A DNA stretch of 64,000 bases from Verrucomicrobiia bacterium (GTDB lineage: Bacteria > Verrucomicrobiota > Verrucomicrobiia > Verrucomicrobiales > Akkermansiaceae): NCBI GenBank assembly GCA_030430455.1, contig JAUIJB010000003.1, positions 34,116 to 98,115 of the forward strand, given 5' to 3'. The translations under genes were made by a program, and so were the position numbers. Within the stretch, counting starts at the first letter, position 1. Each line of letters starts with the position of its first letter. The notes below the pieces were generated by a model that had not been told where the DNA came from, did no database searches, and saw only the letters and a program-made list of their open reading frames with translations. Shown in pieces: positions 24,293-37,089 of the stretch.

Positions 24293-24811
24293 TCAGCGCG
24301 CCGCCGCCATCTCCTCGATCATGCTGTTCACCGGGATGCCGCCGATGCGGTAGCCCGCGTCGTCGGTGAGCAGGTCGAAGCTGCGGGAGATGCCGCGGAC
24401 GGCCTCGACCGAGAGGAGACGGTTGCCGGCGACCTCATCGCCGGCCGCAAGATCCTCCGCCGGGACACCATCGACGCGGTGGCGGCGGGAGAGCACCAGG
24501 GTGGCTCCGTTTTCAAAGCCAAGCCGGAGGTGCCCGGGGCGTGACGGCTCCTCGTGGTACTGGTGAACCTGGCGGACCACCACGACCTCGCCGCGATAGC
24601 CGGTGACGAGGTCCCCGGTGGACAAATCCTCCACCGCCACCGGGCCGGCCGGGGTGTCGATGAGACTGCCCTCCGCCAGGCAGCCGAACTGCAGCTTAAG
24701 CAGCCCCGCGCTCGCGGCGGTCCCCAGCAGGTTGCAGCTCGGACTGGTCAGGCAGAGGCCAAGGGTGGCGGCGAGGACGGCGATCCGGCGGAGCTGGGAG
24801 GAGAGAATCAT
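24293..24811 (-). CDS. lipoprotein with a free-standing Hint (intein-like) domain
   Basis: A 172-residue protein. The N-terminus is a lipoprotein signal (LGLCLTSPSC) with Cys as the likely lipid anchor. From residue about 45 a Hint domain fills the rest. Its start block is GCLAEGSLIDTPAGPVAVEDL with GDLV, block B is LVLSRRHRVDG, and the end block is FDLLTDDAGYRIGGIPVNS. The splicing-type Cys1 and the late Asn-Ser pair are kept, but the penultimate His is replaced (PVN for VHN). Only nine residues follow. Hint domains cleave or splice proteins. With so little flanking sequence this may be a regulatory or degenerate form. Confidence 0.72.
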   Translation of the reverse strand: MILSSQLRRIAVLAATLGLCLTSPSCNLLGTAASAGLLKLQFGCLAEGSLIDTPAGPVAVEDLSTGDLVTGYRGEVVVVRQVHQYHEEPSRPGHLRLGFENGATLVLSRRHRVDGVPAEDLAAGDEVAGNRLLSVEAVRGISRSFDLLTDDAGYRIGGIPVNSMIEEMAAAR

Positions 24812-25059
24812 GGCAAGTCTGGACCGCCCGATCCGGGAGCGGGACCGGCTGTGGCCAGCGGCTTTCCCACCGATCCGCCTCGATTGCAAACCCATTGGGG
24901 GTCATCCTTCCCGGAGATTCGGCCCCTTCGCAGCCGATTTGCCACCACTCAGGGCCAGTCCCGAGACGCCGGGGAGGTTATCGCCTGGGCGCACCAGCTC
25001 CAAGTCGGCGCTGACCTCCATCAGCGCCCGGGCCGCCGGTATCGCCGACGACCGGCGAT

Positions 25060-26565
25060 TTACGACTCCTCCGGCTCGCGCAGCGTCAGGGCGCCGGTCG
25101 GGCAGGCGGCGACAGCCTCCCCGGCGGCGACGCGCAGCGCATCGGACAGCCTGCCGTGGAAGGGCACGCCGAGATGGACGTCGAAGCCGCGGCCGATGAA
25201 GGTGAGCCCGAGGGTCTCCGCGTGGTCGCCGGCGACCCGGATGCAGTTGCCGCAGCGGATGCACTTGGCGGGCTCGAAGCGGACCAGCGGGTGCTCGATG
25301 TTGCGCGAGTAGCGCAGGCGCTCGCCGCTGCTGAAGCGGTTCGGGTTGACGCCGTGGTCGACCGCGAGCTGGCGCAGCCTGCAGGAATCCGCCTTGGCGC
25401 AGTGGCACAGCACGCAGCGCCTCGACTCGGCGATGGCGTGGTCGATATCGGCCGGCTCCCCGCGGGGGGCGCGTGACGACTCGAGCAGGAACTCGTCCAT
25501 CTCGCCCTCGAGCAGCCGGCCCATGAAGACCGAGAAGGGCTTCGGCGGACGCCGCACCGGCCGGCCACGGAGGTGCTGGTCGATGCAGCTGGCCACCGCC
25601 TTGCCATCGGCCACCGACTGCACCGGCTTGCCCTTCGGCCGCAGCACGCGACCGGCGGCGAACACGCCGGGTGCGCCGGCGAGCATCATGCTCTCCTTGC
25701 CGACCTCCGGCGGTACCCCGCCCGGCCCGGTCGCCACCAGCACGGCGTCGAAGCCGTCGAGCAACTCCGGGGGGGCGTCGACCGGCTCGCCGCAGCGGAA
25801 CTCGACGCCGGCGCTCCCGATCCGGTCGATCTCGGCATCGAGCACCTCGGCGGCGACGTCCGGGTGGTCGCGGCGGATGCTTCCGCCCGGCCGGTCGGCG
25901 GACTCGAAGACCACCGCGCGGTGACCCTGCCGGGCGAGGAACCAGGCCGCCGACAAGCCGGTGAAGCCGCTGCCGACGATGGCGACGCGACCGCCGCGGG
26001 CGGGGGCCGCCGGGGGCGTGCGGGGTGGTCCGGCGGCGCGCTCGGTGTCGATGGCGTGAAGCACCAGCCCGGCGATCGCGACCGGCTCGTCGCGGGTGCC
26101 GCGCCGGCAGCCCGACTCGCAAGGCCGGTGGCACACCCGGCACAGGACGCCGGGCAGGGCGAGGTCGCGGCGGATGACCCCGGCGGCCTCGCCGGTCCGT
26201 CCGTGGCGCAGGTGCTCGAGCACCGCGGGGATCGTCAACTGGGCCGGGCAGATCCGCTGGCAGGGCGACAGGCAGTCGCCGAGGTGGTCGCTGAACAACA
26301 ACTCAAGCGCCATCCGCCGCGCGGCCCGGACTTCTTCGCTCGCCGACTCGACCTCCATCCCGTCGACCACCCGCGAGGCGCAGGACGGGATGAACTGGCC
26401 GCTGTGCTTCAGCTTCACCGCGCAGACCATGCACGAGGCGCCGGCCTCGAAGCCCTCGAGGTGGCAGAGGGTCGGGATCTCGATCCCGGCCGCCCGCGCC
26501 GCCTGCAGGATGGTGGCCCCCTCCCCGGCGGGGACGGTGCGGCCGTCGATGGTGATGTGGTTCAT
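25060..26565 (-). CDS. NuoG/HydA-like ferredoxin fused to a shortened GltD-like flavoprotein
   Basis: A 501-residue cytoplasmic protein. Residues 1-80 are a plant-type 2Fe-2S domain (CHLEGFEAGASCMVCAV). Residues 90-170 are the cluster region seen in the GltD/NuoG family (CLSPCQRICP, CRVCHRPCESGCRRG). An FAD-binding Rossmann motif follows (VAIVGSGFTGLSAAWF). The FAD domain passes almost directly from VLVATGPGG to GVFAAGR, so the NAD(P)H-binding insert of GltD is missing. The C-terminus has a CIRCGNCIRV cluster motif and a NuoG-like end. It would pass electrons between iron-sulfur centres and FAD. It is the last gene of the redox cluster, 42 bases after the NuoEF fusion. Confidence 0.82.
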   Translation of the reverse strand: MNHITIDGRTVPAGEGATILQAARAAGIEIPTLCHLEGFEAGASCMVCAVKLKHSGQFIPSCASRVVDGMEVESASEEVRAARRMALELLFSDHLGDCLSPCQRICPAQLTIPAVLEHLRHGRTGEAAGVIRRDLALPGVLCRVCHRPCESGCRRGTRDEPVAIAGLVLHAIDTERAAGPPRTPPAAPARGGRVAIVGSGFTGLSAAWFLARQGHRAVVFESADRPGGSIRRDHPDVAAEVLDAEIDRIGSAGVEFRCGEPVDAPPELLDGFDAVLVATGPGGVPPEVGKESMMLAGAPGVFAAGRVLRPKGKPVQSVADGKAVASCIDQHLRGRPVRRPPKPFSVFMGRLLEGEMDEFLLESSRAPRGEPADIDHAIAESRRCVLCHCAKADSCRLRQLAVDHGVNPNRFSSGERLRYSRNIEHPLVRFEPAKCIRCGNCIRVAGDHAETLGLTFIGRGFDVHLGVPFHGRLSDALRVAAGEAVAACPTGALTLREPEES

Positions 26566-26607
26566 GGCGGGCGGAAGTCGGTCTTGCAGGTTCCGGGTGG
26601 CGTTCGT

Positions 26608-28983
26608 CTAGGGGCTGGCCACCTCGATCGCGTCCTCGGGGCACGCTTCCAGGCAGGCGTTGCAGCGGGTGCAGCGGGAGTCGTCGATGACGTGGCGACG
26701 GTAGGGAGTGGCGGGGATCGCGTCGGCCGGGCAGGCCTGGGCGCACAGCGTGCAGCCGACGCAGCCGGGGGTGACCGAGTAGCGGATGAGCTCGCGGCAT
26801 TTGCCGGCCGGGCAGCGGCCGTCGAGGTGGGCCTCGAACTCGCCTCGGAAGTGCGCGATGGCGGTGAGCACCGGGTTCGGCGCGGTCTTGCCGAGGCCGC
26901 AGAGCGAGGCCCGCTTCACCATCTCCGAGAGTTCCAGGAGTTCGTCGAGGTCCTTGCGCTTCGCCTTGCCCGCCACCAACCGGTCGAGGATGTCGAGCAT
27001 GCGGCGGGTGCCGATGCGGCAGAAGGTGCACTTGCCGCAGGACTCGCACTGGCAGAACTCGAGGAAATAGCGAGCCACCGAGACCATGCAGTCGTGGCGG
27101 TCGAGCACGATCAGCCCGCCCGAACCCATGATCGCGCCGACGCCGGCGAGTGACTCGTAGTCGACCGCCGTGTCGGCCAGCGCCGCCGGCACGCAGCCGC
27201 CGGAGGGCCCGCCGATCAGCACCGCCTTGAAGGGCGACCCGTCGGGCGTGCCGCCGCCGATGTCGTCGACGATCTCACGGATGCTCAGCCCCATCGGCAC
27301 CTCGATCAGCCCGCCGCGGGCGACCTTCCCCGCCAGCGCGAAGACCTTGGTCCCCTTGCTCTTCGCGGTGCCGATGACCGCGAAGGCACCCGCGCCGTGG
27401 CGCAGGATCCACGGCAGGTTGGCGTAGGTCTCGACGTTGTTGATCAGGGTGGGCCGACCGTGCAGGCCCCGCTCGGCGGGAAACGGCGGCTTGAGGCGCG
27501 GGATGCCGCGCCGGCCTTCCATCGACTCGAGCATCGCGGTCTCCTCGCCGCAGACAAAGGCCCCGGCCCCCTCGAAGAGCTCGAGCTCGAGGGACATCCC
27601 CGAGCCGAGGAGATCGCGCCCGAGGAAGCCCCGCTCGCGGCAGATGCGCAGGGCCTCGCGCAGCCGCTCGACCGCCGCCGGGTACTCGGCGCGGACGTAG
27701 AGGTAGCCGTGGTCGGCGCCGACCGCGTAGGCGGCGATCGCCATTCCCTCGATCACCCGGAACGGGAAGGACTCCATCAGCATGCGGTCCATGAAGGCAC
27801 CGGGGTCGCCCTCGTCGCCGTTGCAGATGACCTCGCGTCGCCCGGCCGCGGTGCCCGCGACCACGCGCCACTTGCGGCCGGTCGGGAACCCCGCCCCACC
27901 CCGGCCACGCAGGCCGCTGCGCTCGACCTCGTCGATGACCTCCCCGGGCGACAGGCCGTCGAGGCACTTGCGCAGGCCGGCGAAGCCGCCGTGGGCGAGG
28001 TAGTCGTCGAGGTCGAGCGGGTCGAGCCGGCCGTAGTGCTCGGTGGCGATGTGCGTCTGGCGACCGAAGAAGGCGGCCACCGGCGGCGGCGGTTCGAGCT
28101 CCTCCGTGGCCGCCTCCACCGTCGCCCCGGCGAGCTGCCCGAGGACTCGCGCCGCGCCGTGGCGGATCCGCGGCCACCACCCGGGCGGGCGGAAGTAGCG
28201 CAGCAAGGTCGGCTCGACCTGGCCGGCGGCGAGTCCGGAGAGCTGCACGGCGGGCATCCCCGGCCGGGCGATCTCGATCATCGGCGTGCGGTCGCACATG
28301 ACGACGCAGCCGACCCGCCTCACCGCCACCGGCAGCCGGCGCCGGCGGATGGTCTCGCGCAGCGCGTCGTGGGTTGCGCCGCAGCCGCGGGCGATGCAAC
28401 ACGAGTCGAGACACAGGCGGACCTCGCCGGCGGGGTGGGCCGGAACCCCGGGCGGCCGCGCCGGCTTGCGGGCCCGCTTGCGGATGCCCGCCTCCTCGCG
28501 ACGGAAGTCATCGATCAAGCGGGCGGCCCGCTCGCGGTTCAGCTGGCCGTGGGTCCGCTCGTCGAGCTGCACCACCGGGGCGAGCGTGCAACAGCCGACG
28601 CAGAAGACCTTTTCCAGCGTGAACTCGCGCGCCGCGTCGGTGTCCTCGCCCGGCGCCAGGCCGAGTTGACCGGCAAGCGCCTCGTGGACGACCTCGGCCC
28701 CACGGATGTGGCAGGCCGTGCCGTTGCACACGCGGATGTGGTGGCGGCCCATCGGCCGGTGACGGAACTGCGCGTAAAAGGTGGCGACCCCGGCCAGCGT
28801 CGCCGGCTCGATCCCGGTCAGCTGGCAGACCCGCTCGAGCGCGGGCTCGGGCAGGTAACGGTAGTGCTCCTGCAGTTGCTGCAGGATGGGCAGGGCCTGG
28901 TCGCCGTCGCCACCGAGCCGCGCGACCACCTCGTCGACATGGGTCAGATCGACCTCCGGGGCCGGCTGGAGTTCAGTCGCCAT
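26608..28983 (-). CDS. NuoE-NuoF (HydC-HydB-like) fusion, NADH-binding iron-sulfur flavoprotein
   Basis: A 791-residue protein. Residues 1-165 are NuoE-like with 2Fe-2S ligands (VCNGTACH and FCVGCC). Residues 190-280 are a second thioredoxin-like 2Fe-2S domain (CLDSCCIARGC, VGCVVMC). Residues about 310-720 are NuoF-like, with FMN/NADH motifs GLRGRGGAGFPTGRKW, CNGDEGDPGAFMDR and GAGAFVCGEETAML, and the 4Fe-4S motif CESCGKCTFCRIG. The end carries two 4Fe-4S motifs (CVGCTLCAQACP, CTRCNACLEACP). This equals HydC and HydB of bifurcating hydrogenases joined in one chain. It should be the NAD(H) entry or exit. It overlaps the PQQ gene by 11 bases. Confidence 0.86.
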   Translation of the reverse strand: MATELQPAPEVDLTHVDEVVARLGGDGDQALPILQQLQEHYRYLPEPALERVCQLTGIEPATLAGVATFYAQFRHRPMGRHHIRVCNGTACHIRGAEVVHEALAGQLGLAPGEDTDAAREFTLEKVFCVGCCTLAPVVQLDERTHGQLNRERAARLIDDFRREEAGIRKRARKPARPPGVPAHPAGEVRLCLDSCCIARGCGATHDALRETIRRRRLPVAVRRVGCVVMCDRTPMIEIARPGMPAVQLSGLAAGQVEPTLLRYFRPPGWWPRIRHGAARVLGQLAGATVEAATEELEPPPPVAAFFGRQTHIATEHYGRLDPLDLDDYLAHGGFAGLRKCLDGLSPGEVIDEVERSGLRGRGGAGFPTGRKWRVVAGTAAGRREVICNGDEGDPGAFMDRMLMESFPFRVIEGMAIAAYAVGADHGYLYVRAEYPAAVERLREALRICRERGFLGRDLLGSGMSLELELFEGAGAFVCGEETAMLESMEGRRGIPRLKPPFPAERGLHGRPTLINNVETYANLPWILRHGAGAFAVIGTAKSKGTKVFALAGKVARGGLIEVPMGLSIREIVDDIGGGTPDGSPFKAVLIGGPSGGCVPAALADTAVDYESLAGVGAIMGSGGLIVLDRHDCMVSVARYFLEFCQCESCGKCTFCRIGTRRMLDILDRLVAGKAKRKDLDELLELSEMVKRASLCGLGKTAPNPVLTAIAHFRGEFEAHLDGRCPAGKCRELIRYSVTPGCVGCTLCAQACPADAIPATPYRRHVIDDSRCTRCNACLEACPEDAIEVASP

Positions 28984-30754
28984 CGCTTCCCATCGCGTAG
29001 AGGTGTTCCCGTCCCCGCAGGTAGACCCGCCCCGGGCCGAAGGCCGGCGAGGCGCCGATCTCCTCGCCCAGCGGGTGCCTGGCCAGCTCGCGGAAGCCGT
29101 CGCCACCGGCCTCGCCGACAATCATCTCACCCTCCCTCGTGAGCAGCCACAGCCGGCCGTTGACCAGACTGGGCGAAGCCTGGAAGTCGTCCTCGAGGTC
29201 GTGTTCCCAAAGGGCCTTGCCGGTCGCGGCGTCATAGGCGAACAGCCGGCCGAAGACGAGGGTGTAGACCCGCTGGCCATCGCCAAGCAGGCTGCAGACA
29301 TCCGGGTAGTCATCCTCGTCGCGCCGCCACCGGACCCGGTGGTCGGCGACCCCGCCGCGGGCGGCGACGTCCACCGCGATGAGGCACGAGCCGTCGCTCG
29401 CGAACCAGGCGACGCCGTCGTGGTAGGCCGGCGAGGGCGCGACGTCGCCCGACATCGCCTCGAGCTTCCACAACTCGGCGCCGTCGGCCGGGTCGTAGGC
29501 GATGATCCAGGGGTCGGCGGCGGTGAGCACCTGGGGCTGTCCGGCGTGCTCGATCACCAGCGGGGTGACCCACGAGCTCGACACCGGACGATCGGTCGAC
29601 CAGCGCGTCTCGCCGCTGGCGACATCGAGCGCGAGGATCCGTGACTTGCCGTCACCGGCGCTGCCGCGGTCGTAGACGACGATCACCAGGTTGCGCCACA
29701 TCGCCAGCGAGGTGGCATGGCCGTAGGGGTTGTCGGGCGCGCCGAGGTGGCGGGCCCACAGCGGTTCACCGTCGATGCCGACCCCGGCGATCTCACCATT
29801 GGCGAACATCGCCACCACGTGGCGGCCGTCCGTCACCGCCGTCGGCGCGGCGAAGCCGGTCTCCTCCATCACCTGCGGTGGCTCGCCGCGGCTGCCCTGC
29901 GGGGTGCTCACCGGGGCCTCCCAAAGGATCGCGCCGCTGGCGGCATCGATGCCGTAGATCACCCGCTCGTCGGCGCTGGCACCGGTGAGGAAGATCCGCT
30001 CGCCCCACACCACCGGCGAGTTCTCGCCGGGCAGCGGGATGGCCGTCTTCCACAGCACGTTGTCGCCGCTGCCGCCGTCCCACGACGGCGGCAGGTCCGC
30101 GATCTCCGCCACGCCCGTTCCCTCCGGACCGCGGAAGCGCGGCCAGTTGGCCGCCCAGGCCGCCGGCTCCGGCCACCAGGCTTCGTCCGCCCGGCCCATT
30201 CCGGCCATCTGCGCCGACGGAGCCGGGTCGTCGCCGGCGGGCGTTACCGCCGCGGGCGGCCACCACTGGCGGGTCCGGCCGCCGACCATCGTGGCGGCCA
30301 TGCCGACGAGCAGCGCCAGGCTGCCCCCGACCGCGGCGCCGGCGCGACCGGCCGACCTGCGGCGGTCCATCGGCCCGGGCGCCGGCCCCGCAGGTCGATC
30401 GCCCCGCAGGTGACGGGCGAGGTGGAGCGCCGCGATGAACAACACCGCACCCCCGAGCAGGAGATAGCCACCCCGCCCGGCGAAGCCCTCGCGACGGAAG
30501 TACTCCAGGCGCAGTTGTTGGTCGAGCGCACGGATCTCCTCCTTCAGCGCCGCGTTCCCCGGGTCCTCCCGCAGGCGGGCCTTCAGCGGGGCGAGAACTT
30601 CGGCCTCGACCAGCCGGATCCGCTCGTCGCCGTGCTCGATCCGCGCGCCGTTGAACCACAACAGGCCGGCCAGCACCGCGCAGAACACGCCGGCGACGAC
30701 CGCGACCCGCCGGGTGGCCACCAGCAGGGTCCTGCGCCGTGAACCCTCAGGCAC
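28973..30754 (-). CDS. membrane-anchored PQQ-type beta-propeller protein
   Basis: A 593-residue protein from GTG 30754, which sits five bases after a GGAGG ribosome-binding site. Three N-terminal hydrophobic segments (near residues 10-30, 85-105 and 120-140), with a coiled-coil-like acidic region between the first two, precede a propeller of about 400 residues. The propeller has repeated blades such as GIDAASGAILWEAPV, ALDVASGETRWS and AYDAATGKALWE. Similar folds hold PQQ in quinoprotein dehydrogenases, but other members are non-enzymatic scaffolds. No dehydrogenase metal site was identified. It overlaps the upstream NapH-like gene by eight bases, so it is probably the periplasmic partner of that membrane protein. 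Confidence 0.75.
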   Translation of the reverse strand: MPEGSRRRTLLVATRRVAVVAGVFCAVLAGLLWFNGARIEHGDERIRLVEAEVLAPLKARLREDPGNAALKEEIRALDQQLRLEYFRREGFAGRGGYLLLGGAVLFIAALHLARHLRGDRPAGPAPGPMDRRRSAGRAGAAVGGSLALLVGMAATMVGGRTRQWWPPAAVTPAGDDPAPSAQMAGMGRADEAWWPEPAAWAANWPRFRGPEGTGVAEIADLPPSWDGGSGDNVLWKTAIPLPGENSPVVWGERIFLTGASADERVIYGIDAASGAILWEAPVSTPQGSRGEPPQVMEETGFAAPTAVTDGRHVVAMFANGEIAGVGIDGEPLWARHLGAPDNPYGHATSLAMWRNLVIVVYDRGSAGDGKSRILALDVASGETRWSTDRPVSSSWVTPLVIEHAGQPQVLTAADPWIIAYDPADGAELWKLEAMSGDVAPSPAYHDGVAWFASDGSCLIAVDVAARGGVADHRVRWRRDEDDYPDVCSLLGDGQRVYTLVFGRLFAYDAATGKALWEHDLEDDFQASPSLVNGRLWLLTREGEMIVGEAGGDGFRELARHPLGEEIGASPAFGPGRVYLRGREHLYAMGSDGD

Positions 30755-32045
30755 GGGCACCTCCTTCCTCGCCGAGGTCGACGACTTCGCCGCGCCGGAC
30801 GCGCTCGTAGGGGCAGGCCGAAAAACAGCGGGCGCAGGACACGCAGTCGGCCGGGTCGGTCTCGTAGTCGGCGGTCGCCCGCGGGAAGCGGACACGCACG
30901 AGGTGCCCCGCGACCACCACCCCGAACAGGGCACCGAGCAGCCGGCCGAGGAGCAACGAGCGCTCCTCGAGGTCGGCGACCGCCGTTGCCAGCGCGTTGC
31001 GGTCCGCCCCGGCGTGGCGCCAGGCGACGATCTCGTCCGGCGCCGGATCCGGCAGGGTGCCGGCCCCGGCCATGGCCACCTGCTCGGCGAGCTTGCCGGT
31101 CGGATGCCAGGCCACGCTCGCCAGGCCGACCTTGCCCCCCAGCCAGCCGAAGACCAGCACCGCGAGCGGGACCAGCGCGACCCGCAGCAACAGGCGCGCA
31201 CGGGCGTCCGGGTCGCGCGGGGGAAAGCCGCCCGTCGGCGGCTGAATCGCCCCGTGCGGGCAGGCATCCTCGCACAGGCGGTAGCGCGAGCAGTGGTCGG
31301 GCGTGACCGACGGCCGGAAGCACGACACCCGCGACAGCAGCCCGAGCAGGGCTCCGTACGGGCAGAGCCAGCGGCAGTAGGGCCGGCCGACGAACATCGA
31401 CAGCAGCAGCAGGGCACCGCCGAGCAGCAGCATGCCGCGCGGTCCCCCCATGCGGAAGATGCCGACGAAGGGGTCGTATTTGCAGATGATGAACAGCCCC
31501 CCGGTGGCCGCCAGCAGGATCGCGAGGGCCAGGTAGAGCCACGGCAGCAGGCGCAGCGACTGGTCGAGCCAGTGCGGCACCTTGAGCGGGCGCAGCAGGA
31601 CCAGCTCCTGGATCGCGCCGTGCGGGCAGACCCCGGCGCAGAACCCGCGGCCCCACACCAGGGCGACGAGCAGCGGCAGGCTGAAGAAGGCGATGACCGC
31701 CAGCGGGACCGCATGGCCCGGGTCCGCCAAGCCGAGGGCGACGTTCTGCACCGAGCCGATCGCGCACACGCAGCCGCGGCGCCAGAACCCGAAGTAGGCG
31801 AGCGCCGCGAGCGACAGGATCACCAGGCCCTTGCGCGAGCGCAATCGCAGCGAGATCCACGAGGCCAGCCCGAGGCCGAGCGCCAAGGCGGCGACGTCGA
31901 CCCACGCCTGCGTGCGCGCCCGCGACTCCGGCACCACGGTCTGCGGAATCTCGTGGCCGCCGCTGAAGTCCGGCGGCGGGAAGCGCTCGATGCCGAGCAG
32001 CGGCAGCGCCGAGGCGAGCAGGGCCAGCAGGATCAGCGCCCTCAT
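30747..32045 (-). CDS. NapH/NosR-like membrane protein with 4Fe-4S clusters
   Basis: A 432-residue polytopic protein with about seven membrane helices. The NapH-family cysteine sets are present: WGRGFCAGVCPHGAI and VGRPYCRWLCPYGAL. Ferredoxin-type motifs follow (CSRYRLCEDACPHGA, and at the C-terminus CVSCARCFSACP). Members move electrons between the quinone pool and periplasmic or cytoplasmic partners in nitrate, nitrous oxide and other respirations. Here it would link the soluble module to the exported ferredoxin. ATG 32045 overlaps the upstream TGA as ATGA. Confidence 0.85.
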   Translation of the reverse strand: MRALILLALLASALPLLGIERFPPPDFSGGHEIPQTVVPESRARTQAWVDVAALALGLGLASWISLRLRSRKGLVILSLAALAYFGFWRRGCVCAIGSVQNVALGLADPGHAVPLAVIAFFSLPLLVALVWGRGFCAGVCPHGAIQELVLLRPLKVPHWLDQSLRLLPWLYLALAILLAATGGLFIICKYDPFVGIFRMGGPRGMLLLGGALLLLSMFVGRPYCRWLCPYGALLGLLSRVSCFRPSVTPDHCSRYRLCEDACPHGAIQPPTGGFPPRDPDARARLLLRVALVPLAVLVFGWLGGKVGLASVAWHPTGKLAEQVAMAGAGTLPDPAPDEIVAWRHAGADRNALATAVADLEERSLLLGRLLGALFGVVVAGHLVRVRFPRATADYETDPADCVSCARCFSACPYERVRRGEVVDLGEEGGARA

Positions 32046-32605
32046 GTTTCCTCCTCTCCACGCAGTCGGTAGGGGGTGGCCCGCGGAACCAGCCGGAACG
32101 CCCCCGCCGGGCAGGCGCCGGCGATGGCGCAGCGGTTGCAGTCGACGCAGCGGTCGTGGTTGACCTGCAGGTAGAGCGAGCCGTTGCCGAACATGTTGCA
32201 GCCCTTCACGCACTTGCCGCAGCCGACGCAGAGGTCGGGCAGGATCCGGTATTCATAATAGGGGTGCTCGATGTAGGTCCGCTCGATCGCAGCGGTCGGG
32301 CAGAGCTGGTTCTCGGCACCCTCGTCGAGCGCGACCGGGTCGGGCTCGAAGTAGCCGGTGCACAGTTCGCAATAGCCGCACATGCCGTGCGAGTGGACCG
32401 TCTTGACCGCCGACACCTCGAGCACGCACTCGGTGGCGCAAAGCCCGCACTGGATGCAGGCGTCCGGGTCGATCTGCCAGACCTCGTCGTCGCGCCGCTC
32501 GCGGGTCGCCAGCGCGCCGGTCGCGCCGCCGATCCCGAGCAGGCCGAGCCCGCGCAGCCCGCCGGAGAGCATCTCGCGGCGGCTCATCGATCCGCCCTCA
32601 GCCAT
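32042..32605 (-). CDS. Tat-exported multi-cluster ferredoxin
   Basis: A 187-residue protein with a twin-arginine signal (SMSRREMLSGGLRGLG) and several 4Fe-4S motifs: CIQCGLCATECV, CGYCELCTGYF with a later Cys, CVGCGKCVKGC and CVDCNRCAIAGACP. This is the NapG/HmcB type of periplasmic ferredoxin that partners NapH-like proteins. It overlaps the NHL gene by eight bases. The start at 32605 could instead be MSRRE at 32587. Confidence 0.85.
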   Translation of the reverse strand: MAEGGSMSRREMLSGGLRGLGLLGIGGATGALATRERRDDEVWQIDPDACIQCGLCATECVLEVSAVKTVHSHGMCGYCELCTGYFEPDPVALDEGAENQLCPTAAIERTYIEHPYYEYRILPDLCVGCGKCVKGCNMFGNGSLYLQVNHDRCVDCNRCAIAGACPAGAFRLVPRATPYRLRGEEET

Positions 32606-33659
32606 CGGACTCCTCCTTCCTCCGCATGACCCGCAGCGTGCCGCCGAGCGAGTCGAGCACGAACACCCGCCCCGCCGCGTCGGCCTCGACGTAGATCCCC
32701 GCGCTCGCTGCCTTCGGCCTGCCGGCTTGGGCGGCCTTGAGGTAGTCGGGAAAGTCCCCGGGGCCGGCGACGATTCCGGTGAAGTCCCCGCGGTCGTCGT
32801 AGGTCTTCACCCGCGGCAGGCCCTTCTCGCCGGTGACGTAGCCGCCGTCCGGAAGCAGGGCGAAGCTGACCGGGTTGCAGCAGCCGCAGAAGCCGTCGAC
32901 CGCGTAGGACGGCCGGCCCCACGAAAGCTCCAGGGTGCCGTCCTGCGTCCACGCCCCGATCCGGTGCTTGCCCGGGTTGGCGATCCGCAGCAGGCCGTCC
33001 GCGGCCAGCCGGACGCAGAAGTACGGGCTCGGCACGACGAAGCCCTCGACGCCCCGGTCGGGGTCGCGCTCGCCGATCACCCCGAGCGTCCGGCCGTCGT
33101 GGTCGAGCACCCGCACGACCCGGCCGCCGGCGTCGGCGAGGTAGACCCGGCCTTCCGCGACCGCCAGCGAGACCGGCAGCACGCCGTCGAGTTCCCACAC
33201 GGCGGCCAGGCCGCCGTCCGGGCCGATCCTCTCGACGCCATCCGGGCGCCCGGCGAGCAGGCCGCCGTCGGCAAGCCCCGCCACGGCGTGGACGGGACCG
33301 TCGATCGCGACGAAGCCGAGCTCGCCGCCGCCGGCATCGAAGCGCCGCACCCCGCCGTCGCCACAGACCAGCAGGTCCCCGCCGGGCGCAAGGGCGAGGT
33401 TGCGGGGACGCTCGAAGCCGGCGTCGAAGCGGGTCACCTCATGCCACTGGACCAGCTCCGGGTCGGAGGCTTGGAAACGGGAAACATCGTAGCTGAACTC
33501 GGGACCCAGCGGCGGCTTGCGGGCCGCGGGCGGGTCACCCGCCGTCTTCCGCGCGGCGATCCCGCCGAGCGCACCGAGCCCGCCGAGCCCGCCACCCCAC
33601 AGGGCGGCGCGCAGCACCTTGCGCCGATGCTGGTCGGCGCCTGACTTTTCATCAGCCAT
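32598..33659 (-). CDS. exported NHL-repeat propeller protein
   Basis: A 353-residue protein with a Tat-like signal (HRRKVLRAALWGG) and a six-bladed NHL propeller: RPRNLALAPGGDLLVCGDG, GRVYLADAGGRVVRVLD, GRVFVLDSLGG. The Cys-rich loop GFCGCCNPVSFALL and TGEKGLPRVKTYDD look conserved enough to be functional, perhaps as a cluster or cofactor contact, but this is inference. The longer frame upstream is rejected because it would overlap the preceding gene deeply. It overlaps its upstream neighbour by eight bases. Confidence 0.78.
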   Translation of the reverse strand: MADEKSGADQHRRKVLRAALWGGGLGGLGALGGIAARKTAGDPPAARKPPLGPEFSYDVSRFQASDPELVQWHEVTRFDAGFERPRNLALAPGGDLLVCGDGGVRRFDAGGGELGFVAIDGPVHAVAGLADGGLLAGRPDGVERIGPDGGLAAVWELDGVLPVSLAVAEGRVYLADAGGRVVRVLDHDGRTLGVIGERDPDRGVEGFVVPSPYFCVRLAADGLLRIANPGKHRIGAWTQDGTLELSWGRPSYAVDGFCGCCNPVSFALLPDGGYVTGEKGLPRVKTYDDRGDFTGIVAGPGDFPDYLKAAQAGRPKAASAGIYVEADAAGRVFVLDSLGGTLRVMRRKEESDG

Positions 33660-33882
33660 CTTCACCGGGATACGTTCGGGTTTCCTCCCCGCCCTTGGCG
33701 GATCTTGCCTTGGGCAGCGCACATGCTTCCAGAAGCGGGCAGCCGCCGCACGGGCCGCTGGCCCGGCATTCGGCGCCGCGCGGCCGGAGGCCCAGCCACG
33801 TGGCGAGGCCTCCGACGCCTCCCAGCCCGGCCCAGCGCAGGCAGCGGCGCATCATTTCGCGACGGGAGATTTCCGCTTTCAT
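33652..33882 (-). CDS. 76-residue Tat-exported four-cysteine protein
   Basis: A twin-arginine signal (ISRREMMRRCLRWAGLGG) is followed by about 40 mature residues with the pattern C-x5-C-x2-C-x5-C (ECRASGPCGGCPLLEAC). The spacing could bind an iron-sulfur cluster or zinc. It is sandwiched by overlaps of eight and four bases in the redox operon. No family was recognised. Confidence 0.72.
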   Translation of the reverse strand: MKAEISRREMMRRCLRWAGLGGVGGLATWLGLRPRGAECRASGPCGGCPLLEACALPKARSAKGGEETRTYPGEDG

Positions 33883-35360
33883 GGTCCCTCGGGGTTGGAG
33901 TTCCGCTCACTGCCGACTGCGTGGCCCGCCGCGGTCTCGTTCCTCGCCGCCAGGTCGAGGCAGCGCATCTTGGTGAGATCGCGCACGAGCAGGCGACCGC
34001 CGGCGATGGCCATCGGCCCCCACGAGTCGTGGCCGTCGAGCACCCGGGCACGGGCCAACAGCTCGAACCCGGCGGGCGAGGCGGCGACCATGCTCAGCTC
34101 GCCGTGGTCGTCCATGACCAGCAGCTTGTCGTCGGCGACCAGGAAGGGCCCGAGCCCGAAGCGGTTCGCGGGCCCGCTGGTCCAGCGCGGCGTGCCGTCC
34201 GCGGCGAGGCAGACGAGCTCGCCGTCCGGGCGCACGCCGAAGAGGTGGTCGCGGTGGAGGATCGGGGTCTGCTGGGTCGCGCCGAAGGTGGCGTCATCGA
34301 GCCGATACTCCGGCTCGACCGCCCAGTCCGCCAAGTCCGCCCCGTCGCGGCGCACCCGCAGCATCAGGCTGCCGGCCCGGTAGCCACCGGAGAGGAACAG
34401 GCGACCGCCGGGCAGCGGCACCGGCGTCGGCACCGTGGCGATGCTGATCCGCCATTCCCCGGTCGTCCACAGCAGGCGACCGTCATCGGCCGCCACGCCG
34501 GCGACACCACGATGACCGCAGTAGATGTAGCTGCGCGTCCCGCCGACCTCCGCCACCGCGACCGAGGAGTGGGTCATCTTCCACCCCGGGGTGTTCGGGC
34601 AGCTCCACGCCACCTCTCCGGTGGCGAGGTCGAGGGCACACAGCAGCGGCCCGTCGGGCGGCGTCCCGGCCGGCGCGAGGATCACGCGGTCGCCGTCGAT
34701 GAGCGGGCACTGGCCGGCGTACCAGGGCGGGATGTCGGTGCCGAACTCGCGGACCAGGTCGACGCTCCAGCACAGCCCGCCGCTGGCCATGTCGACGCAG
34801 CTGACGTGGCCCATCGGCCCGAGCGCCACGACCCGGCCGCCCGCCACGGCCGGCACGGTGCGCGACATCCCGTGGTTGCGCTTCACCTCGACCGGGTACG
34901 ACAGGCGCCAGATTTCCCGGCCGTCGGCGAGCGACAGGCAACGCAGCGCGTCGGCCCCGGCCTCGCGGTCGTAGTCCATCAGGAAGACTCGACCGGCGTG
35001 GATCGCCGGGCCGGCGTAGCCCTCGCCGACCTCGACCGACCACAGCAGCGGCGGGCCGTCCGCCGGCCACTCCCCGAGCAAGGCCGTGGGCTCGGGCGAG
35101 ACCCCGTCGCCCGCCGGTCCGCGAAAGCCGGGCCACGATCCCGGCAAGGGGACCGCCACGCCGGGACCGGTCGTGGTCGTGGCCGACTCGAGCGGCGAGG
35201 GTCCGGCGTCGGCCCCGGCCAGCCGGGTGCCGGCGGCGGGAACCCGCCGCGGCACTTCGGCCGGTCCGGCCCGGAGCGCGACGACCAACGCGGCCGCCGC
35301 CGCCAGCGCGAGGGCGAGCGGCGCGAGCACGGTCGGCCAACGGTGCATGGCGGCCATCAC
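33879..35360 (-). CDS. exported PQQ-type beta-propeller protein
   Basis: A 493-residue protein with an N-terminal hydrophobic anchor or signal (TVLAPLALALAAAAALVV), then a propeller. It begins WPGFRGPAGDGVSPEP, a phrase shared with the other cluster propeller (WPRFRGPEGTGV), and has blades such as CVDMASGGLCWSVDL and ALDLATGEVAWSCP. It is the first gene of the redox operon. The start could be GTG 35360, ATG 35357 or ATG 35348. Cofactor binding is not established. Confidence 0.75.
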   Translation of the reverse strand: MMAAMHRWPTVLAPLALALAAAAALVVALRAGPAEVPRRVPAAGTRLAGADAGPSPLESATTTTGPGVAVPLPGSWPGFRGPAGDGVSPEPTALLGEWPADGPPLLWSVEVGEGYAGPAIHAGRVFLMDYDREAGADALRCLSLADGREIWRLSYPVEVKRNHGMSRTVPAVAGGRVVALGPMGHVSCVDMASGGLCWSVDLVREFGTDIPPWYAGQCPLIDGDRVILAPAGTPPDGPLLCALDLATGEVAWSCPNTPGWKMTHSSVAVAEVGGTRSYIYCGHRGVAGVAADDGRLLWTTGEWRISIATVPTPVPLPGGRLFLSGGYRAGSLMLRVRRDGADLADWAVEPEYRLDDATFGATQQTPILHRDHLFGVRPDGELVCLAADGTPRWTSGPANRFGLGPFLVADDKLLVMDDHGELSMVAASPAGFELLARARVLDGHDSWGPMAIAGGRLLVRDLTKMRCLDLAARNETAAGHAVGSERNSNPEGP

Positions 35361-35670
35361 CCGGCACCATCCGGCCGCCGTGAGCCACTCACAAGCAGCG
35401 ACTCACGATCCGAAAGGAGATGCGCGGGGATTGCCGGGATTTGCGCGGCGAACGCCGTGGTTGGAGGCGCCGTCGAGCCGGACCTTCGCCGCGGGCAGGT
35501 GCTTCCGGGCGAACGCCCGGCGCCGCGCGGATCCCGCTGCCACTGATGCCGCCGTCGGGGCCTTGCGGGAGGCTGCCGTGGAATCTAGGGTGGATCCCGC
35601 GCAGGGTGCTCCAAGCCGCCCCGCCCTCCCTCCCCTCTGCCCGCCCATCCTCAATCCCGTTGCCCTTCCC
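35361..35670. promoter_or_regulatory. divergent promoter region, redox cluster versus pectin module
   Basis: This 310-base gap separates the eight-gene minus-strand cluster from the GH105-PL22 pair. Both promoters should lie here. I see no clear operator or sigma boxes. Confidence 0.35.
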
Positions 35671-37089
35671 GTGAAATCCGTCCTGCCCTTCGTCGCCCCG
35701 TCTTTCGTCGGCCCGTCCTTCGCCGCCCTGCTCGCCCTCTGTCCGTCGTCGCCCCTCGGCGCCCAGCAGGCAACCGACGCCAACACGCCGCTGCACCTGC
35801 TGCAGCCGGAGTACGAAACCCCCTACGGCGTTCCCGAGCGCGACGCCATCATCGCGGTGCTCGACCGCGTCCACGACTACCTCGACCAGACGACCCCGGC
35901 GCAGCTGGTCGACGCCGCGAGCGGCGAGCCGGTCGAGGATTTCCCGGCGATCCCGGAGATGGAGAGGATCGCCTTCAAGCAGGGCGACTTCCGCATCATG
36001 AGCTACGAATGGGGCGTGACCTACGCCGGCATGCTGCTCGCCACGGAGGCCACCGGCGACCCGCAATACGCCGGCTACGCCTTCGAGCGCCTCGGCTTCC
36101 TGGCCACGATCCGGCCCCACGTGCTCGAGCTCGAGAAGCGCCGCCCGGAGGCGCGCCACCCGCTGGGCTCGATGCTTCACCCGGATTCGCTCGACGACGC
36201 CGGCGCGATGTGCGCGGCGATGATCAAGGCGCGCCGCGCCGGGCTCGAGGCCGAGCTCGGGCCGGTCATCGACACCTACATCCGGCACATCCACGAGAAG
36301 CAGTTCCGGCTCGAGGACGGCACCCTCGCGCGCAACCGCCCGCAGCCGCGCTCGCTTTGGCTCGACGACCTGTTCATGAGCGTGCCCGCGCTCGCCTGGA
36401 TGGGCGCCGACACCGGCGAGGCGCGCTATTTCGACGACGCCGTCCGGCAGGTCACGCAGTTCTCCGAGCGCATGTTCGACCGCGACGAGGGCCTCTTCAT
36501 CCACGCCTGGATCGACGGCATGGACCCGCACCCGGAGTTCCACTGGGCCCGCGCCAACGGCTGGGCGCTGATGGCGATCATCGAGCTTCTCGAGGTGCTC
36601 CCGGAGGACCACGAGGGCCGCGGCGAGGTGCTCGGCATCCTCCGCAACCACCTCCGCGGGCTCGCCGCCGTGCAGTCCTCCACCGGCCTGTGGCACCAGC
36701 TGCTCGACCGCGACGACTCCTACCTCGAGACCTCGGCCACGGCCATCTACACCTACGCCATCGCCCGCGCCATCAACCGCGGCTACGTCGACGCGAAGGC
36801 CTACGGCCCGATGGCCTGCCTGGCCTGGAACGGGCTCGCCACGAAGGTGAACGGCAAGGGCCAGGTCGAGGGAACCTGCGTCGGCACCGGCATGGGCTTC
36901 GACCCGGCCTTCTACTACCACCGCCCGGTCAGCGCGTTCGCCGCGCACGGCTACGGGCCGGTCCTGCTGGCGGGCGCCGAGATGATCCGCCTGCTCGACC
37001 GCACCCACCCGCGGATGAACGACAGCGCGATCCAGTTCTATGATGTCGAGATCCAGACGGATGAGCCGATCTTCCGCGTCGGTGAGTAG
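35671..37089 (+). CDS. secreted GH105 unsaturated uronyl hydrolase
   Basis: A 472-residue protein from GTG 35671 with a hydrophobic signal peptide. The six-barrel motifs are PRSLWLDDLFMSVPALAWMG, the aromatic HWARANGWALMAI and GTCVGTGMGFDPAFYY. It releases unsaturated galacturonate from lyase products. It is about 100 residues longer than the GH105 at 6946, with an extended N-terminus. Its 3' end overlaps the PL22 gene by 50 bases, so the two are translated together. Confidence 0.85.
   Translation: MKSVLPFVAPSFVGPSFAALLALCPSSPLGAQQATDANTPLHLLQPEYETPYGVPERDAIIAVLDRVHDYLDQTTPAQLVDAASGEPVEDFPAIPEMERIAFKQGDFRIMSYEWGVTYAGMLLATEATGDPQYAGYAFERLGFLATIRPHVLELEKRRPEARHPLGSMLHPDSLDDAGAMCAAMIKARRAGLEAELGPVIDTYIRHIHEKQFRLEDGTLARNRPQPRSLWLDDLFMSVPALAWMGADTGEARYFDDAVRQVTQFSERMFDRDEGLFIHAWIDGMDPHPEFHWARANGWALMAIIELLEVLPEDHEGRGEVLGILRNHLRGLAAVQSSTGLWHQLLDRDDSYLETSATAIYTYAIARAINRGYVDAKAYGPMACLAWNGLATKVNGKGQVEGTCVGTGMGFDPAFYYHRPVSAFAAHGYGPVLLAGAEMIRLLDRTHPRMNDSAIQFYDVEIQTDEPIFRVGE

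What the first reader, a model, noticed from the sequence alone, without database searches (positions are those of the whole stretch)
25060..35360. Eight-gene redox cluster joining a hydrogenase-like NADH module, a NapH-like membrane protein and exported propellers
Eight minus-strand genes overlap or nearly touch (overlaps of 11, 8, 4, 8, 8 and 4 bases; one gap of 42). They encode HydB/HydC-like and HydA-front-like proteins, a NapH-type 4Fe-4S membrane protein, a Tat ferredoxin, a Tat Cys-rich peptide, an NHL propeller and two PQQ-type propellers. No hydrogenase H-cluster or terminal reductase is present. The parts suggest electron flow between NAD(H) and periplasmic partners through the membrane. 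I know of no named system with this composition.
Basis: partly seen in the sequence, partly recalled or inferred. Interest (0 to 1): 0.9.

Follow-up and report, generated by a model that had tools for sequence, protein, structure and literature searches.

The report
NADH-driven transmembrane iron-sulfur relay cluster
A set of eight genes, kept together in nearly the same order in bacteria of several phyla, encodes relatives of NADH-oxidising electron-bifurcating enzymes beside a membrane iron-sulfur protein, a ferredoxin-like protein and propeller proteins, and it is predicted to push electrons out through the cell membrane, likely to finish a lipid-like product that the cell would export.

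Summary
In detail: eight minus-strand genes at 25060-35357 with the stated overlaps. The set is conserved: of 44 relatives with at least 8.9 kb upstream of g1, 35 hold g5-g4-g2-g1 in order, 29 of those also g8. The hydrogenase-like part is better read as a Bfu-family (electron-bifurcating) module: in 59 g2 proteins the B2 His and three Cys and the B3/B4 Cys are invariant; a fifth B2 ligand is Val in the window. g1 is a Stn-type BfuA whose NADP(H) domain is missing. g4/g5 resemble NapH/NapG by motif. No hydrogenase, reductase or FMN-binding domain was found among the eight. Among 194 genomes of the phylum, g4 (29 genomes) co-occurs with an FtsX permease (24), a GT4 glycosyltransferase (20), a terpene cyclase (27) and a DUF116-polyprenyl synthase (26). 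The window's genome has permease and glycosyltransferase on another contig; no cyclase was found. Best reading: NADH and reduced ferredoxin feed a NapGH-like relay to the periplasm, likely for an exported lipid. Direction and substrate are inferred.

The parts
33879..35357 (-). g8: PQQ_2/BamB-like beta-propeller, 492 aa, N-terminal hydrophobic stretch (by eye), with its own conserved residues (H162, R166, W212, Y213, Q216, C217, H263)
   Evidence: these residues in 30 or 31 of 31 sequences
33652..33882 (-). g7: 76-aa peptide with RR start, four Cys (39, 45, 48, 54) and LPxA; possible small Fe-S protein, N-terminally anchored (inferred)
   Evidence: Cys in 25 of 25 sequences; motif found near g6/g5 in 29 of 35 loci
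32598..33659 (-). g6: NHL propeller with N-terminal helix 8-39 and invariant G259-C260-C261-N-P
   Evidence: 32 sequences; AlphaFold model pLDDT 88.5, Foldseek best hit TRIM2 NHL domain E 2.1e-14
32042..32605 (-). g5: ferredoxin with RR start and 16 Cys in four 4Fe-4S patterns, NapG-like
   Evidence: Cys in 39 or 40 of 40 sequences
30747..32045 (-). g4: NapH-like membrane protein: two CX3CP motifs (136/140, 224/228), CxC (92/94), C188, two 4Fe-4S motifs (252-262, 401-411)
   Evidence: model pLDDT 84.5, no solved fold at E <= 0.001
28973..30754 (-). g3: three hydrophobic segments by eye, then PQQ_2/BamB-like propeller, likely periplasmic
   Evidence: topology read from sequence, not computed
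26608..28983 (-). g2: fused BfuC-BfuB: NuoE [2Fe-2S], Trx-like domain, FMN/NADH-binding NuoF, two C-terminal 4Fe-4S
25060..26565 (-). g1: BfuA: 2Fe-2S, DPD_II-type 4Fe-4S, FAD domain lacking the inserted NADP(H) domain, C-terminal 4Fe-4S

Best explanation
The cluster encodes a Bfu-type NADH/ferredoxin module (g2 with g1) together with a NapH/NapG-like membrane pair (g4 with g5), which is predicted to merge electrons from NADH and reduced ferredoxin and pass them across the cytoplasmic membrane, likely to periplasmic partners among the Cys4 peptide and the propellers (g7, g6, g3, g8). Shown: the gene set, its conservation, the Bfu ligand set (one of five B2 ligands is Val in the window), the absence of an NADP(H) domain in g1 and of any recognised hydrogenase or reductase among the eight, and co-occurrence with an ABC/FtsX permease, a GT4 glycosyltransferase and often a terpene-cyclase module. 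Inferred: (1) NADH and reduced ferredoxin are both donors (confurcation); (2) BfuA hands electrons to the 4Fe-4S domains of g4; (3) g4 passes them to g5 on the outside; (4) g7 and the CC-bearing NHL propeller take them on; (5) the final use is a reductive step on a glycosylated, likely isoprenoid-derived, envelope product moved by the ABC transporter. Step 5 is the weakest.
For: Bfu signature: in 59 g2 proteins the residues matching B2 ligands C438, H525, C531, C536 and all eight B3/B4 Cys are invariant; position 476 is C in 55, V in 3 (window included), S in 1. At the aligned positions the window genome's own HoxF-like and NuoF-like paralogues lack them, as PMC9304861 says of non-bifurcating homologues. 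g1 aligns to the Stn-type A subunit 9bov_A on both sides of a gap of about 175 residues that in Stn holds the second Rossmann fold; the 21 aligned relatives lack it too. In six genomes of two other families g2 itself ends in a minimal BfuA (2Fe-2S, His-Cys3, one 4Fe-4S, by eye) without DPD_II or FAD (Pfam run on one of them), so the FAD is dispensable and BfuA looks like a plain relay. g4/g5 keep NapH and NapG Cys motifs; [quoted passage not shown] Synteny: 35 of 44. Co-occurrence over 194 genomes: g4 with permease 24 of 29 (p 4e-21), with cyclase 27 of 29 (p 1.5e-26), with DUF116-polyprenyl synthase 26 of 29, with GT 20 of 29.
Against: No terminal acceptor or product is known. The cluster is patchy: three of 18 genomes of the window's genus, own included, have g1 at 76% identity or more, and 29 of 194 of the phylum have g4. 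The terpene module was not found in the window's own genome (91% complete) and was found in 23 of 46 genomes reached through loci, so it is not a universal partner; five genomes have the permease without g4. Fisher p-values ignore shared ancestry. The window clade has Val at one B2 ligand position. g4 scores far below the curated NapH cut-off. Characterised NapH proteins draw on quinol, so a direct cytosolic donor is not established. Complex formation, direction and export of g7/g6/g3/g8 are untested. In Akkermansiaceae g1 lies apart from g2-g8, in 7 of 9 loci with the GT, which could mean that g1 has another role.
Confidence: 0.5

Rival explanations
1. Reverse flow: a periplasmic oxidation (perhaps by the PQQ-like propellers) feeds electrons inward through g5-g4 to g1-g2, which bifurcates them to NAD+ and ferredoxin.
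For: Bfu mechanisms must be reversible (PMC9304861); propellers of the PQQ_2 class are present; [quoted passage not shown]
Against: Propellers score far below curated PQQ-dehydrogenase cut-offs (31 bits against 480). The donor would have to be near -400 mV, unlikely for a periplasmic sugar or alcohol oxidation (inference).
Confidence: 0.15
2. The NapGH-like pair serves maturation of the exported propellers or another periplasmic redox protein, as MauM/MauN may do for methylamine dehydrogenase (recalled), and the ABC transporter exports a cofactor or peptide.
For: NapG/NapH-like pair, small Cys peptide and propellers in one operon, ABC transporter nearby or in the same genome; the FAD enzyme in the window genome's second locus matches QhpG below cut-off (149 of 240 bits; it matches halogenase CmlS better); radical SAM proteins in several loci.
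Against: g7 has no conserved Trp and its Cys pattern looks like an Fe-S site (inference); the radical SAM gene lies with the terpene genes, not with g7.
Confidence: 0.2
3. g2-g1 is a soluble Bfu enzyme with an unknown small-molecule third substrate; its link to the membrane genes is only co-regulation.
For: Type 1 Bfu enzymes have catalytic BfuA domains (PMC9304861); g1 keeps a FAD domain; g1 is apart from the other genes in Akkermansiaceae.
Against: The FAD domain has no second nucleotide site and is absent from the minimal BfuA versions, which sit in the same run of genes as g4/g5.
Confidence: 0.12

Closest known systems
Bfu family, Nfn-Bfu / Stn transhydrogenase (StnABC)
   Same: BfuB/BfuC cofactor set; BfuA with 2Fe-2S, DPD_II and GltD-type FAD; best PDB matches 9bov, 8oh5 (its C chain has 1172 aa, the length PMC10482914 gives for StnC; the PDB names differ) and 9n5u
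   Different: NADP(H)-binding domain and the FdhF-like tail of StnC missing; BfuC and BfuB fused; tied to membrane and exported genes
HydABC electron-bifurcating [FeFe]-hydrogenase
   Same: g2 resembles HydB (7q4v, 7p5h)
   Different: no H-cluster domain
Nuo-Bfu and Mbh-Bfu, predicted membrane-bound Bfu complexes (PMC9304861)
   Same: Bfu core joined to membrane proteins
   Different: those use complex I or Mbh ion-pumping subunits; here the membrane partner is a NapH/NapG-like pair and no such subunit is among the eight
NapGH, NosR, MauMN and flavinylated NapH-like systems (PMC8238504)
   Same: CX3CP membrane module with two 4Fe-4S, partner ferredoxin with four 4Fe-4S
   Different: no FMN-binding domain found, no NapA/NosZ among the eight, cytosolic NAD(H) module in the same operon

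Membership tests
Bfu family (PMC9304861) | BfuB: FMN/NADH domain, NADH_4Fe-4S, C-terminal two 4Fe-4S; BfuC 2Fe-2S Trx | tested here: met
   (SLBB at 24.9 bits, under its cut-off of 27)
Bfu family (PMC9304861) | B2 cluster ligands incl. His525, absent in non-bifurcating homologues | tested here: met
   H and C438, C531, C536 in 59 of 59; 476 is C 55, V 3 (window included), S 1; own NuoF/HoxF-like proteins lack them. Four of five ligands met in the window
Bfu family (PMC9304861) | BfuA with 2Fe-2S and 4Fe-4S domains encoded with BfuBC | tested here: met
   g1
Bfu family (PMC9304861) | bifurcating NAD+/ferredoxin activity | not testable with these tools
   needs protein
Nfn-Bfu / Stn | NADP(H)-binding Rossmann domain in BfuA | tested here: not met
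   about 175 residues of 9bov_A have no counterpart between g1 281 and 297; same in the 21 aligned
[FeFe]-hydrogenase HydABC | H-cluster domain | tested here: not met
   no such family listed for the eight proteins
NapGH | two CX3CP motifs and two C-terminal 4Fe-4S in NapH; four 4Fe-4S in NapG | tested here: met
   in 33 sequences the motif Cys are invariant except C255, and P141 of the first motif, at 90% or more
NapGH | curated NapH model score | tested here: not met
   55 and 52 bits against cut-offs 213 and 234
NapGH | partner periplasmic nitrate reductase | tested here: inconclusive
   none among the eight nor, by eye on the first 120 residues, among the 25 largest recurrent neighbour families; the rest of the genome was not searched
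PQQ-dependent dehydrogenases | curated PQQ-dehydrogenase score | tested here: not met
   g3 31 bits against 480; g8 not listed for that model

The most novel reading that the evidence does not exclude
An undescribed envelope system of roughly fifteen genes: a terpene cyclase, DUF116-polyprenyl synthase and radical SAM enzyme make a cyclised isoprenoid, a GT4 enzyme glycosylates it, a giant FtsX permease exports it, and a Bfu-NapGH chain drives its reduction outside the membrane with electrons merged from NADH and ferredoxin: electron confurcation used to power lipid chemistry in the periplasm, or to reduce a new lipid electron carrier.
Probability: 0.25. Interest if true: 0.92.

Novelty: new variant of a known kind. 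Interest (0 to 1): 0.74.

Why it matters
PMC9304861 left 17 Bfu clades without a function; here is a widespread membrane-linked Bfu type with a defined partner set (whether it falls in one of those clades was not tested). If true, energy-coupled cytosolic electrons would go directly to periplasmic chemistry by an Fe-S relay. It also gives a genetic handle on an unknown, probably isoprenoid, envelope product and a role for some of the many unexplained propeller proteins of Planctomycetota and Verrucomicrobiota (recalled). Each step can be tested.

Tried and rejected
Rejected: plain HydA front (g1 is FAD/DPD_II-type); PQQ dehydrogenase (scores far below cut-offs); flavinylated NapH system (no FMN-binding family listed); the idea that g1 stands alone in Akkermansiaceae genomes (g2 at 65-72% identity in 8 of 9 of them; operons read). 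Led nowhere: Foldseek for g4 (no hit at E <= 0.001) and g6 (generic NHL); papers on DUF116 with polyprenyl synthases (DUF116 in none of the 15 listed of 61); sequence search of g4 in the PDB (two hits to light-harvesting proteins, taken as spurious). g1 as phylum marker was dropped because many of its 44 hits at 1e-50 cover only about residues 4-281 of longer proteins; g4 was used instead.
Full report
OBSERVATION. Eight minus-strand genes lie at 25060-35357 with overlaps of 4, 8, 8, 4, 8 and 11 bases and one gap of 42. I name them in transcription order g8, g7, g6, g5, g4, g3, g2, g1. The window lies in a 4.2 Mb, 150-contig draft, 91% complete; its closest relatives at g1 are records titled Verrucomicrobiia, Verrucomicrobiaceae bacterium E54 and a protein of Haloferula sp. 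A504, so I infer Verrucomicrobiota.

CONSERVATION. An alignment of 21 g1 proteins was scanned over genome contigs: 516 stretches encode a relative, the best 80 were kept. The record titles span Verrucomicrobiota, Planctomycetota, Armatimonadota, Poribacteria, Aminicenantes and a few others; many are metagenome bins whose names may be wrong. Of the 80, 44 have at least 8.9 kb upstream of g1. Of these 44, 35 hold g5-g4-g2-g1 in this order, and 29 of the 35 also g8 above my threshold; in three of the other six (L049, L069, L085) a weaker g8 match is cut by the end of the locus. In most of them g6 precedes g7; the window's order (g7 before g6) is shared by L016, L021, L028 and L066. The nine others: four Akkermansiaceae with g1 alone (L017, L020, L022, L024), L042 (g4-g3-g2-g1 with other genes between), L046, L055 and L094 (g2-g1) and L064 (g1 with a shortened g2 under the threshold). 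The g7 motif was found in 29 of 35 loci that hold g5 and g6. In nine Akkermansiaceae genomes g2 is present at 65-72% identity in eight, one of them a fragment; the ninth has 47% at best. Of nine stretches fetched there, six show g8 to g2 as an operon (g7 not flagged in three), one is cut after g3-g2, one (L115) is a second copy with g1 included, and one holds another Bfu-like enzyme. The g1 of these genomes lies beside the glycosyltransferase in 7 of 9 loci. Within the window's genus three of 18 genomes, the own one included, carry g1 at 76% identity or more, so the cluster is patchy.

THE NAD(H) MODULE. g2 fuses BfuC and BfuB: NuoE, a Trx-like domain, NuoF and two 4Fe-4S. Its best solved relatives are the B subunits of 9n5u, 9bov and 8oh5, then HydB. 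8oh5 is named formate dehydrogenase/HoxF in the PDB, but its C chain has 1172 residues, the length PMC10482914 gives for StnC, so I take it and 9bov (1178 residues) as Stn-type; 9n5u is named NfnA/NfnB. PMC9304861 (abstract, section 4 part 1 of 2, section 5 part 1 of 3, section 6 part 1 of 2 and passages seen) defines the Bfu family by a BfuBC core whose B2 cluster has ligands C438, C476 or Thr, H525, C531, C536. In 59 g2 proteins (the window's and 58 from loci, over 700 aa) all but 476 are invariant; 476 is C in 55, V in 3 including the window, S in 1. One C1 ligand position is C in 55 and T in 4, with an invariant C next to it; the B5 positions vary. At the aligned positions the genome's own NuoF-like and HoxF-like paralogues lack these residues. 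In a midpoint-rooted tree of the NuoF part, the 59 fall in one clade (support 0.956) together with 17 further g2 proteins fetched later; three other Bfu-like proteins of such genomes (one fetched twice) and four NuoF/HoxF-like ones fall outside, and one fragment was too short to enter. g1 aligns with 9bov_A except for about 175 residues between its positions 281 and 297, where Stn carries the second, NADP(H)-binding Rossmann fold (StnC as described in PMC10482914, passages), and except for the FdhF-like tail. The 21 aligned proteins share the gap. In G120, G153, G167, G214 (one genus), G127 and G232 g2 runs to 974-1040 aa and ends in a minimal BfuA with 2Fe-2S, His-Cys3 and one 4Fe-4S (by eye; Pfam on the G214 protein), without DPD_II or FAD; no separate g1 was seen in the stretches fetched. 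Their position 476 is T. So the FAD is dispensable, and this BfuA has no catalytic domain of its own.

THE MEMBRANE AND OUTSIDE PARTS. In 33 aligned g4 sequences the Cys of two CX3CP motifs, of two 4Fe-4S motifs and three more (92, 94, 188) are invariant, except C255, which is at 90% or more. The g4 model (pLDDT 84.5) matches no solved fold at E <= 0.001. g5 has 16 conserved Cys in four 4Fe-4S patterns and an RR start; g7 has an RR start, four Cys (25 of 25) and LPxA. g6 is an NHL propeller with an invariant G-C-C-N-P in 32 sequences; in the G120/G127 type it is only about 210 aa. g3 and g8 are PQQ_2/BamB-like; PQQ binding has no support. Topology and export of g3, g4, g5, g6, g7 and g8 are my reading of the sequences; no signal-peptide predictor was run.

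WIDER SET. Recurrent neighbours in the 80 loci are a ~400-aa propeller (g9, 13 loci), a GT4 glycosyltransferase (12), an ABC ATPase (10) and a ~1100-aa FtsX/MacB-type permease (5 loci, and its C-terminal end at the edge of 8); flanks of 10 kb cut many loci. The window genome carries permease, ATPase and GT at G000:C130, beside an AMP-ligase, a thioesterase and a Trp-halogenase-like FAD enzyme. Over a draw of 194 genomes of the phylum (same handles in each call): g4 29, permease 29, GT 25, squalene-hopene-cyclase-like protein 31, DUF116-polyprenyl synthase 30. g4 with permease 24 (p 4e-21), with GT 20, with cyclase 27 (p 1.5e-26; in G183 only a 140-residue piece), with polyprenyl synthase 26. 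Partners often lie on other contigs, so this is not only linkage. The five g4 genomes without a permease hit are one genus; four of them were fetched: a diverged permease matches weakly in L150 (57 bits), its start is seen by eye in L143 and L148, and L144 ends too early. Against this: permease occurs without g4 in five genomes, all five with GT; GT was not found in nine g4 genomes; cyclase was not found in the own genome and G104; and it was found in 23 of 46 genomes reached through loci. In G127, G120 and G167 one run reads Fd-like, radical SAM slot, DUF116-polyprenyl synthase, prenyltransferase toroid, cyclase, g8, g6, g5, g4, g3, g2, g9, ATPase, permease (the radical SAM identity was tested only on L039 and L144).

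MECHANISM. The NAD(H) module has the bifurcating core but no third-substrate domain, and its operon partners are a NapH/NapG-like pair. The simplest reading is that g4 is the third partner: NADH and reduced ferredoxin are merged at FMN, electrons leave by BfuA to the 4Fe-4S domains of g4, cross to g5, and reach g7/g6 outside. Co-occurrence with a permease, a glycosyltransferase and terpene genes suggests that the use is a reductive step on an exported, likely isoprenoid-derived product. The last step is a guess from association; the own genome shows no terpene genes of this type.

KNOWN SYSTEMS. In the parts seen, PMC9304861 describes Nuo-Bfu and Mbh-Bfu membrane types, not this one; PMC11406978 (passages) and PMC8238504 (passages) describe other BfuABC subtypes and flavinylated NapH-like systems. 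Nine paper searches listed no title or abstract that describes this set; two searches found no paper, searches listed 15 of 477, 15 of 61 and 10 of 15. Subscription journals and preprints are mostly not held.

Noticed in passing
24293-24895: Short minus-strand protein just downstream of g1 that looks like a lipoprotein with a Hint (hedgehog/intein) domain by eye; not tested.
   Followed up: no
26974-26976 (g2 residue V670): The window and two of 58 relatives have Val at a B2-cluster ligand position that is Cys in 55 of 59; may change the potential of that cluster.
   Followed up: partly
G000:C117 (L002): The same genome encodes HoxF/HoxU-like proteins, so it may also hold a bidirectional hydrogenase or formate dehydrogenase.
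   Followed up: partly
L123 2075-12875: Permease, ATPase, AMP-ligase, DMT-like, thioesterase, GT, Trp-halogenase-like FAD enzyme and propeller in one run in the window's genome; resembles a pigment or aryl-lipid locus. A similar run without g4 is in G204.
   Followed up: partly
L039 15339-16877 against L144 4319-5515: Two different radical SAM types fill the same slot: a B12-binding type (TIGR04013-like) and a SPASM/NirJ-HpnH-like type.
   Followed up: partly
L039:2777-3808 (g6 relative): Its only named match is ScyF, a scytonemin-pathway NHL protein, below cut-off (29 of 350 bits).
   Followed up: no
35086-37089 (+): Plus-strand protein upstream of g8 resembles an unsaturated glycosidase (GH105-like, recalled); divergent to the cluster.
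   Followed up: no
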